In this document: piece after piece, positions 54,719-57,305 of the stretch
How positions within the stretch are numbered: position 1 is the first letter of the stretch
Layout: every line of letters starts with the position of its first letter
DNA from: Thermoleophilaceae bacterium
GTDB taxonomy: Bacteria > Actinomycetota > Thermoleophilia > Solirubrobacterales > Thermoleophilaceae
DNA length: 64,000 bases
Direction of reading: 5' to 3'
Assembly (NCBI GenBank): GCA_030447875.1
Contig: JAUJOA010000004.1
Span: forward strand, 1 to 64,000
Translations under genes and position numbers: made by a program
The notes under the pieces: model-generated
What the model was told of the DNA's origin: nothing
Seen by the model: only the letters and a program-made list of their open reading frames with translations
Database searches by the model: none

Positions 54719-55093
54719 CTATGCGAGCCACTGCTGCGCCCACGCCTTCAGCGCGCGCACCGTCGGCTCGAGCGCCCGACCTTTGTCGGTCAGCTCGTAC
54801 TCGACGCCGACCGGCACGCCGTCCAGCACCCGCCGCTCGACGATGCCCTCCGCCTCGAGCTCCTTCATCCGCTCCGACAGCAAGCGGTCGGAGAGATCCG
54901 GAACCAGCTGGCGAACCTCCGAGAACCGCAGAGGGCCCTCCAGCAGCACGAGAAGGATCGCGCCCGTCCAGCGCTTGCCCACCAGCTCGACGGCACGGTG
55001 ATAGAGCCCGCAGCATTCCTGGCGACACGACGAGGGTCGCTCCTCGTGACGCATGCTCTCCGAGACCGTCCCCGCTGGCGCGCCGCCGGCCAT
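54719..55093 (-). CDS. HxlR-family winged-helix transcriptional regulator
   Basis: LVGKRWTGAILLVLLEGPLRFSEVRQLVPDLSDRLLSERMKELEAEGIVERRVLDGVPVGVEYELTDKGRALEP. Confidence 0.92.
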   Translation of the reverse strand: MAGGAPAGTVSESMRHEERPSSCRQECCGLYHRAVELVGKRWTGAILLVLLEGPLRFSEVRQLVPDLSDRLLSERMKELEAEGIVERRVLDGVPVGVEYELTDKGRALEPTVRALKAWAQQWLA

Positions 55094-55131
55094 AGGACGC
55101 AAGCTTAGTCCGAGAGCGGCGCCACGACGAT

Positions 55132-55695
55132 TCAGGCCGCCTGCTTCAGGCGACCCTCCTCGGCGGAGCCGTCCAGCGGGACGTCGCCCGCCCGCGTCAC
55201 GAGGTTCGTGAACGTGCCGAGCGCGATGTGCGCCACCAGCTCCAGTATCTGCTCGTCGGTCCAGTCGGCCTCGCGGGCCTCCTCGTGGAGGTGAAGCGGG
55301 GGCGGACCCTCGCTCTCGAGCAGCGCCTTTACGTAGCGGAGCAGGACGGCCTCACGCTCGTCGCGTGAGTCGAACTCTCGCGCGAGCGCGATCTCGTCGA
55401 TGCCGAGCCCGGCCTCGCGCGCTGTGCGCGACACCGTGCCGAGCGCGTAATCGCTCCCCTGGTGCTCGGCGACGGCGAGCGCGACGCGCTGCTGCGTCTT
55501 CAGAGGAAGCGCGCCGTGGCGAAGCTCCGACCGGAAGCGCGCATAGGCGCGAAGGGCGGCCGGTGACCCGGCCATGACCCCTAGGAAGTTCGACAGCTGG
55601 CCGCCCCCGGCGAGGGCACCCTTGAGCACGGGAAGGCTGCGCTCTGGAGCGGTCAGCTCGTCATGAACCTGGAACCTGCTCTCCTTGGTCTTCAT
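55132..55695 (-). CDS. Carboxymuconolactone decarboxylase / AhpD-like protein
   Basis: LPLKTQQRVALAVAEHQGSDYALGTVSRTAREAGL...; EQILELVAHIALGTFTNLVTRAGDVPLD. Confidence 0.85.
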   Translation of the reverse strand: MKTKESRFQVHDELTAPERSLPVLKGALAGGGQLSNFLGVMAGSPAALRAYARFRSELRHGALPLKTQQRVALAVAEHQGSDYALGTVSRTAREAGLGIDEIALAREFDSRDEREAVLLRYVKALLESEGPPPLHLHEEAREADWTDEQILELVAHIALGTFTNLVTRAGDVPLDGSAEEGRLKQAA

Positions 55696-55716
55696 AGCTT
55701 CACTTTCTGCACGCCG

Positions 55717-55735
55717 CTTACGCGGCGTAAGTATA
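55717..55735 (-). promoter_or_regulatory. Candidate promoter -10 (TATACT) overlapped by 15-bp palindrome CTTACGCGGCGTAAG
   Basis: Palindrome 55717-55731, TATACT (minus) 55735-55730, just upstream of the AhpD-like gene start at 55695. Confidence 0.6.
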
Positions 55736-55870
55736 GGTGATCGGATGAGATCCCGCTATCACGTGTACGCGGATACCGCTGCAGGGGATCTATCTATCCC
55801 GGCGCCGTTAAGGCTTCTTAAGGTGGGTCGCGGCGCCACGGGCGAGCGCTTGCCGCGACGGCGCGGAGGC

Positions 55871-56251
55871 TCAGCGCGGTGCTACGACCGGCGGGTAAGC
55901 CTGCTGCCCGCCGGAGGTGGCGCCGTCGGCACCGTCCGCCCGGCCGCTTGCCGCGGCTACCAGAGCCAGGAAGAGCGCGAGGATGACCGCCCAGAGAGCG
56001 AGTCGATCCGGCCGTGAGCCCGCGCGCTCCGAAGCGCTCGGACGTGGACGCCGTCGCACGGGGGCCGGGTCGCCGGTGATGCGCACGGTCCTGCGGTGAG
56101 GGTCGGGCCGCGCCGCCGGTCGAGACAGCGGCTCCCGACGCTGCGGTGCTTCCACGGCTCGCAGTGGGCGCGCCCGAGGAGCGCCTTGCGGCGCCCCACG
56201 GCGAGCATAGTCATCCTGTGCCCGCCGCTGGCGGGCCTCGGCATGTTCCAT
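55871..56251 (-). CDS. Small Arg/Pro-rich single-pass membrane protein downstream of c-di-AMP riboswitch
   Basis: 126 aa; basic disordered N-terminus then LALWAVILALFLALVAAASG TM; ATG 13 nt after riboswitch P1. Confidence 0.6.
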   Translation of the reverse strand: MEHAEARQRRAQDDYARRGAPQGAPRARPLRAVEAPQRREPLSRPAARPDPHRRTVRITGDPAPVRRRPRPSASERAGSRPDRLALWAVILALFLALVAAASGRADGADGATSGGQQAYPPVVAPR

Positions 56252-56263
56252 CGACTCTCTTTC

Positions 56264-56402
56264 TCGCCTACGGAGTTAGCTGACGGGCTCGCGCTGAAAG
56301 AGCTGCGCTACGCCGCACGAACGGCGATTCGCCCCAGGCCTTTGCGGCCACTGGTTCCCCCGTGTCCCGCCCCCTGTGAACGAGACCTCGGCTTATCGGC
56401 GC
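56264..56402 (-). promoter_or_regulatory. c-di-AMP riboswitch (ydaO/yuaA class)
   Basis: Minus strand: GCCGATAAGCCG...ACACGGGGGAACCAGTGG...CCTGGGGCGAATCGCC...GAGCCCGTCAGCTAACTCCGTAGGCGAGAAAG, matching the remembered ydaO core (ACGGAGGAACC...GGGGUUAAUC...CACCCGACAGCUAACUCCGGAGGC). -10-like TACGAT at 56412-56407. Confidence 0.9.
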
Positions 56403-56498
56403 GCGGATCGTAGCAACGGGTTATGACGCCCTCATTCTCGACGGCGTCGGCAAACGCCCCTAAATCCGCGATCAGCGCTTCGCGTATCCTCGCCCGGC

Positions 56499-57305
56499 GT
56501 GGATGTTGCAGTCGTCACCGGGGCAGGGCGCGGGCTCGGCCGTGCGCTGGCCACCCGGCTGGCCGAGCGGGGGCTCTCGGTCCTGGTGACCGACATCGAC
56601 CTCGACTCCGCCGAGCGGGCCGCCGCCGAGATCGGCGAGCGCGCCCGGGCGGCGGCACTCGACGTGCGCGACCGAGCGGCATGCCGGCAGGTGGCGGAGC
56701 AGGCGGAGCGGCTCGGGCGTCTGGCGGTCTGGGTCAACAACGCGGGCGTGCTCCGCACGGGTCGAGCGTGGGACCAAAGCGATGACGAGATCGACTTGAT
56801 GATGGGCGCCAACCTCGCCGGCGTCATCAACGGGTCGCGCGCCGCCGTGGCGCGGATGCGGGCAAACGGGGGTGGGCGCATCCTCAACATCGCGTCGCTC
56901 TCCTCCCTCGGCCCCTCCCCCGGCCTTGCCGTCTACGGGGCGACCAAGCACGGCGTCCTCGCCTTCTCGCTCTCACTCCAGGCCGAGCTGGTCGACGCGG
57001 ACGTTCCGATCGACATCCGCAGCGTGTGCCCGCACGCCATCGAGACCGACATGGTCCGCGAGCGCGCCGACGATCCCGAGGCCGCGATCATATGGTCGGG
57101 CACGGATCTCCTGGGAGCCGAGGAGGTGGCGGATCGAGCGATGAGCGCCCTCTACGGCAAGCGGCTCGTCACCGTTATTCCGGCGCATATGGGAGTTCTG
57201 ATGAGGGCGGTGGACGCCGCGCCGCGACTCGGCGTGCGTACCCTTCCGCTGTTTCGGTGGCTGGGCGAGCGCAACCGGCGGCGCTGGGTCGGCGCCGGCG
57301 GCTGA
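56499..57305 (+). CDS. Short-chain dehydrogenase/reductase
   Basis: VAVVTGAGRGLGRALATRL, VNNAGVL, YGATKHGVLAF; TATCCT-N8-GTG start. Confidence 0.93.
   Translation: MDVAVVTGAGRGLGRALATRLAERGLSVLVTDIDLDSAERAAAEIGERARAAALDVRDRAACRQVAEQAERLGRLAVWVNNAGVLRTGRAWDQSDDEIDLMMGANLAGVINGSRAAVARMRANGGGRILNIASLSSLGPSPGLAVYGATKHGVLAFSLSLQAELVDADVPIDIRSVCPHAIETDMVRERADDPEAAIIWSGTDLLGAEEVADRAMSALYGKRLVTVIPAHMGVLMRAVDAAPRLGVRTLPLFRWLGERNRRRWVGAGG

What the first reader, a model, noticed from the sequence alone, without database searches (positions are those of the whole stretch)
55871..56412. c-di-AMP riboswitch controlling an uncharacterised small Arg/Pro-rich membrane protein
Seen: on the minus strand the ydaO/yuaA core is nearly complete (CACGGGGGAACC, GGGGCGAATC, GAGCCCGTCAGCTAACTCCGTAGGCG) and ends 13 nt before an ATG. 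A TACGAT -10 sits right before the predicted 5' end. Established: ydaO-class riboswitches bind c-di-AMP and usually control K+/osmolyte transport or cell-wall hydrolases. Here the only downstream gene encodes 126 aa: a basic, disordered N-terminus of ~80 aa plus one TM helix, resembling none of the usual targets. Inference: a new member of the c-di-AMP regulon, possibly an envelope or ion-homeostasis effector.
Basis: partly seen in the sequence, partly recalled or inferred. Interest (0 to 1): 0.78.

Follow-up and report, generated by a model that had tools for sequence, protein, structure and literature searches.

The report
c-di-AMP riboswitch on orphan membrane anchor
A genuine RNA switch for the messenger c-di-AMP sits in front of a small, unnamed membrane protein kept across a whole order of soil bacteria, and in some relatives the same gene also carries a cell-wall-binding, hydrolase-like half, so the orphan very probably belongs to the known c-di-AMP cell-wall programme.

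Summary
The riboswitch is real: RF00379 at 56403-56250 (-), 81.3 bits against a cutoff of 38, full length, the only Rfam hit in the window. The genome has five such switches and a DisA-like cyclase. The other four switches precede ordinary cell-wall hydrolases. The 126-aa ORF is a real gene. Homologues occur throughout Solirubrobacterales; 35 of 39 loci from named genomes have RF00379 directly upstream. The order cytochrome c - switch - gene - CMD - HxlR - glnA is widely conserved, and close pairs show purifying selection. No Pfam or NCBIfam model matches. The protein is a disordered basic tail with a conserved RRTVxIxG box, then PDRxAxWA and one C-terminal membrane helix. In some lineages the gene at this locus continues past the helix into PG_binding_1 plus an RlpA-type DPBB domain, so "resembling none of the usual targets" is only half right. 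No terminator follows the aptamer. A conserved aptamer loop (CUCUUUC) is complementary to GAAAGAG, 5 nt before the AUG, so the likely mechanism is pseudoknot masking of the ribosome site: translation off at high c-di-AMP. The riboswitch class is known; the orphan family and its RlpA link appear undescribed. Protein function remains inferred.

The parts
56407..56415 (-). Extended -10 promoter element TGCTACGAT
   Evidence: TGnTAnnnT upstream of 46/49 related aptamers vs 3% of shuffles; read
56250..56403 (-). c-di-AMP riboswitch aptamer (RF00379, ydaO/yuaA)
   Evidence: cmscan 81.3 bits, GA 38, full length
56296..56302 (-). Aptamer hairpin loop CUCUUUC, 5' strand of the proposed pseudoknot
   Evidence: Complementary to the 3' tail, at least 6 contiguous Watson-Crick pairs in 44 of 51 related leaders; covariation weak
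56257..56263 (-). GAAAGAG, ribosome-binding site and 3' strand of the proposed pseudoknot, 5 nt before the ATG
   Evidence: Sequence; conserved in tails of related leaders
55871..56251 (-). 126-aa orphan membrane-anchor gene, the riboswitch's target
   Evidence: ORF, order-wide homologues, purifying selection
56072..56095 (-). Conserved cytosolic box RRTVRITG (residues 53-60)
   Evidence: RRTVxIxG conserved in alignments A1-A3; R54, T55, I58 and G60 at 90% or more in A3
55943..56011 (-). PDR plus single membrane helix (PDRLALWAVILALFLALVAAASG, residues 81-103)
   Evidence: P81, D82, R83, A85, A88 invariant; helix 83-110 in the AlphaFold2 model

Best explanation
A c-di-AMP riboswitch controls, most likely at translation, a single-pass membrane protein (N-terminus in the cytosol, C-terminus outside). 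When c-di-AMP is high, the ligand-bound aptamer stabilises a pseudoknot between the loop CUCUUUC and GAAAGAG, which hides the ribosome-binding site, so the gene is off; when c-di-AMP is low, the site is free and the protein is made together with the wall hydrolases under sister switches. The protein is the anchor-only form of an RlpA-like family: lineages differ in whether the extracytoplasmic PG-binding and DPBB half is present. Its likely job is to act at the membrane on the cell-wall remodelling machinery through its basic disordered tail and RRTVxIxG box. Shown: riboswitch homology, gene conservation, linkage, synteny, fused orthologues, absence of a terminator, loop-SD complementarity. 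Inferred: ligand binding by this copy, off-polarity, translational control, topology, protein role.
For: RF00379 at 81.3 bits; five switches in the genome, the other four before two Transglycosylas genes, an M23 gene and an M23/PcsB-type gene; DAC domain with DisA-like C-terminus present. 35 of 39 relatives from named genomes have RF00379 directly upstream, as do most of the genome search relatives. Conserved order cytC-[switch-gene]-CMD-HxlR-glnA. CMD has its own TATACT promoter overlapped by an inverted repeat, so the small gene is the direct target. No intrinsic terminator. Loop-tail complementarity in 44/51 leaders; the crystallised ydaO RNA has the same loop-tail complementarity and a described pseudoknot (PMC5393176). 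Translational off-control with a CTCC:GGAG pseudoknot is reported or proposed for the C. glutamicum nlpC c-di-AMP switch (PMC9960051). Fused PG_binding_1 + DPBB_1 orthologues, one (L115) carrying every motif of the small family as well, also argue for the topology because a PG-binding domain must lie outside.
Against: Loop and tail are nearly invariant, so covariation support for the pseudoknot is marginal (own-partner helix 6.71 vs 6.58 for swapped partners, 48 of 1000 swaps as good; no excess once G-U pairs are allowed). L016 and L115 break the pairing. Three orthologues at the same locus (L126, L130, L132) lack the switch above cutoff, so the gene can do without it. In Streptomyces rpfA the homologous switch is reported to end transcription without a canonical terminator (PMC10117811, PMC9960051). 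No experiment shows any function for the small protein.
Confidence: 0.7

Rival explanations
1. Same riboswitch and gene, but control is by premature transcription termination, as reported for Streptomyces rpfA and Bacillus ydaO.
For: The Streptomyces rpfA switch is described as causing premature termination although no canonical terminator was found (PMC10117811, PMC9960051).
Against: No terminator-like hairpin with a U-run in 55690-56560; the ATG starts 5 nt after the pseudoknot strand, leaving no room for a separate expression platform. A GC-rich hairpin in the first codons has no U-run.
Confidence: 0.2
2. The 126-aa ORF is not a functional gene (or is a decaying remnant of an RlpA-like gene), and the riboswitch really serves the downstream CMD gene or nothing.
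For: Protein is low-complexity and Arg/Pro-rich with no domain-model match; some relatives carry the longer, enzyme-like form; the tail of about 20 aa after the helix could be a remnant.
Against: Homologues throughout the order with invariant P81-D82-R83, A85, A88, and dN/dS about 0.06-0.33 in close pairs. The anchor-only form is the rule in the sampled loci of this family, mostly with the stop right after the helix. CMD has its own conserved promoter with an inverted repeat.
Confidence: 0.06
3. The small protein is a plain signal-peptide-like product without its own activity, kept only because its translation or mRNA matters (a leader-peptide or decoy role).
For: Many copies end with a signal-peptide-like A-x-A directly after the hydrophobic helix; fused orthologues use the same segment as export anchor.
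Against: The cytosolic RRTVxIxG box is kept in anchor-only forms and is missing from several fused forms, which points to a function of the cytosolic part; no regulated gene follows directly.
Confidence: 0.1

Closest known systems
ydaO/yuaA c-di-AMP riboswitch (RF00379)
   Same: Full-length match of sequence and structure, conserved core, and the same kind of loop-to-3'-tail complementarity as the crystallised ydaO RNA.
   Different: Nothing in the aptamer; the target gene family is new, and the 3' pseudoknot strand doubles as ribosome-binding site.
Corynebacterium glutamicum nlpC c-di-AMP riboswitch (PMC9960051)
   Same: Actinobacterial, no canonical terminator, proposed translational control by an SD-pairing pseudoknot.
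   Different: Its target is an NlpC/P60 peptidase leading a seven-gene operon; here it is a small anchor gene, probably transcribed alone.
RlpA-like proteins with PG_binding_1 and DPBB_1 (PF01471, PF03330)
   Same: Orthologues at the same locus behind the same switch share the N-terminal and membrane module (L115, L151, L152, L021).
   Different: The window protein has no extracytoplasmic domain; it ends 23 aa after the membrane helix.
Streptomyces coelicolor rpfA c-di-AMP riboswitch
   Same: Actinobacterial cell-wall regulon.
   Different: Enzyme target and reported transcriptional control.

Membership tests
RF00379 c-di-AMP riboswitch | Covariance-model score above gathering threshold, full length | tested here: met
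   81.3 vs 38 bits, positions 1-134
RF00379 c-di-AMP riboswitch | Conserved core and loop-to-3'-tail pseudoknot complementarity | tested here: met
   Core; CUCUUUC:GAAAGAG, 7 pairs; same arrangement in the crystallised RNA
RF00379 c-di-AMP riboswitch | Organism makes c-di-AMP | tested here: met
   Gene evidence only: DAC domain in own genome, 91 bits, in a DisA-like ORF
RF00379 c-di-AMP riboswitch | Binds c-di-AMP and switches expression | not testable with these tools
   Needs in-line probing or reporter assays
Actinobacterial c-di-AMP cell-wall regulon | Switch upstream of a peptidoglycan-acting protein | tested here: inconclusive
   Window protein has no enzyme or PG-binding domain, but orthologues at the locus do
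RlpA-like lytic transglycosylase | DPBB_1 domain | tested here: not met
   No Pfam match in the window protein; next ORF downstream is CMD
Orphan RPDR membrane-anchor family (this report) | RRTVxIxG box, PDRxAxWA, C-terminal membrane helix, RF00379 upstream, cytC/CMD/HxlR/glnA locus | tested here: met

The most novel reading that the evidence does not exclude
A secreted RlpA-like wall protein has repeatedly lost its enzyme-like half, while its cytosolic tail, membrane anchor and c-di-AMP switch were kept under selection; the anchor alone is a new kind of c-di-AMP-controlled regulator or scaffold of cell-wall remodelling.
Probability: 0.35. Interest if true: 0.68.

Novelty: new member of a known kind. 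Interest (0 to 1): 0.5.

Why it matters
It adds an unnamed, order-wide protein family to the c-di-AMP cell-wall regulon and gives it a first functional handle through fused PG-binding/RlpA-type orthologues. It also supplies dozens of natural leaders, plus three orthologues without the switch, for testing whether actinobacterial c-di-AMP riboswitches work by hiding the ribosome-binding site, which has experimental support in one species so far in the literature I could read.

Tried and rejected
Pfam and NCBIfam for the small protein: nothing meaningful. A first regular expression for the pseudoknot failed through my own error and was corrected. A terminator or consensus sigma-70 promoter: none found. 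Minimum-energy folding of the leader: not significantly more stable than shuffles (z -0.83), not informative for a pseudoknotted aptamer. Covariation of the pseudoknot: too little variation for a firm result. Nelson 2013, Jones 2014 and St-Onge 2017 are not held in the library, so the original descriptions of the aptamer and of rpfA termination were read second-hand. The riboswitch serving the CMD gene was rejected: CMD has its own conserved promoter. Direction of domain change (loss or gain of the RlpA half): the glnA tree needs at least four changes; with the root at the midpoint the fused form looks older, but the root is not established.

Full report
THE OBSERVATION. cmscan of the whole window gives one Rfam match, RF00379 at 56403..56250 on the minus strand, 81.3 bits against a gathering score of 38, over the full model. 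The -10 belongs to an extended element TGnTAnnnT that precedes 46 of 49 related aptamers and 3% of shuffled sequences.

THE GENOME. The window lies in a partial genome (77% complete) with five RF00379 copies above cutoff. The other four precede a Transglycosylas-domain protein, a PG_binding_1 + Transglycosylas protein, an M23 peptidase and an M23 peptidase with a PcsB-type coiled coil. All 61 genomes searched (this one and 60 relatives) have RF00379, mostly several copies. A DAC domain in a DisA-like ORF is present, so the ligand is very probably made.

THE GENE. The 126-aa ORF has tblastn matches in 31 of 61 genomes, its own included, and a profile of 22 family members finds it in 59 of 299 genomes of the class, all listed as same order or closer. 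In named genomes the 39 relatives are labelled mostly Thermoleophilaceae, Solirubrobacteraceae and Solirubrobacterales, including Conexibacter arvalis DSM 23288; one MAG is labelled Pseudonocardiales and may be misassigned. RF00379 lies directly upstream in 35 of these 39; L119 is cut by the contig end, and L126, L130 and L132 lack it. The locus order cytochrome c - switch - gene - CMD - HxlR - glnA is widely conserved, including in the three copies without a switch. Codon positions 1, 2 and 3 differ in 0.38, 0.34 and 0.53 of comparisons and the closest pairs have dN/dS about 0.06-0.33.

ANATOMY OF THE PROTEIN. The aligned family has a short N-terminal motif, a variable Arg/Pro-rich tail, the box RRTVxIxG, a run of arginines, then PDRxAxWA and one membrane helix; most members stop within a few residues after it. 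AlphaFold2 gives an N-terminal helix 3-18, a confident helix 83-110 and little else. Pfam and NCBIfam hold no model for it.

THE LINK TO A USUAL TARGET. In some lineages the gene at this locus continues after the membrane helix into PG_binding_1 and DPBB_1, the RlpA-type domain: L021, L115, L151 and L152 were checked with Pfam, and L150, L153-L155 and L134-L139 by translation or tblastn. L115 has every motif of the small family, RRTVHITG and HRPDRIAMWAVLLG included, plus two PG_binding_1 and one DPBB_1. These genes also follow RF00379 and mostly share the neighbourhood, though CMD is inverted in some. A glnA tree needs at least four changes between fused and anchor-only forms. The root is at the midpoint, so loss versus gain is open, although fused forms occupy the deepest branches as drawn. 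Because a PG-binding domain must lie outside the cell, the fused forms also indicate N-inside, C-outside topology for the anchor.

HOW THE SWITCH PROBABLY WORKS. No terminator-like site lies in 55690-56560. The aptamer hairpin loop CUCUUUC (56302-56296) is complementary to GAAAGAG (56263-56257), which sits 5 nt before the ATG as ribosome-binding site. Forty-four of 51 related leaders have at least six contiguous Watson-Crick pairs here. The crystallised ydaO RNA, whose sequence is printed in PMC5393176, has CUCCUUCG and CGAAGGAG in the same places, and a pseudoknot is described there. For the C. glutamicum nlpC switch, reporters indicated translational control and a CTCC:GGAG pseudoknot was proposed (PMC9960051). 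Hence the inference: high c-di-AMP, closed pseudoknot, no translation. The weak point is covariation: the two strands hardly vary, and own partners beat swapped partners only marginally.

NOVELTY. The riboswitch is an ordinary member of a known class. The protein family, its order-wide tie to the switch and its relation to RlpA-like proteins appear undescribed in the papers I could search, but the library lacks most subscription papers and the original 2013 gene lists. Protein function is inferred, not shown.

Noticed in passing
55695-55800 (-), upstream of CMD 55132-55695: The CMD (PF02627) promoter TATACTTACGCCGCGTAAGC carries an inverted repeat CTTAC-N5-GTAAG overlapping the -10; it is conserved in many relatives, next to an HxlR-type regulator (54719-55102 -), whose operator it may be.
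   Followed up: partly
L126, L130, L132: Orthologues at the same locus without RF00379 above cutoff; in L130 the -10 (TTAGGAT) is kept and an ATG follows shortly after it, as if the switch had been deleted.
   Followed up: partly
L005:1501-1640: The RF00379 copy before the M23/PcsB-type gene has a very short hairpin (CGCCAUGCGC) and no CUCUUUC:GAAAGAG pseudoknot, so it may use another expression platform.
   Followed up: no
L016:1346-1495: A family leader in which both the loop (AACCGAA) and the ribosome site (GAGGUGA) differ from the consensus and the 7-bp pairing is lost.
   Followed up: no
L009, L018, L021, L095, L099, L103, L104, L135, L138, L139: RNase P RNA (RF00010) lies within about 0.1 to 2 kb of the switch in many relatives but is absent from this window.
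   Followed up: partly
L100/L027: The ORF of this MAG is out of frame at its start relative to its close relative L096 (apparently a one-base shift), either an assembly error or a broken copy.
   Followed up: no
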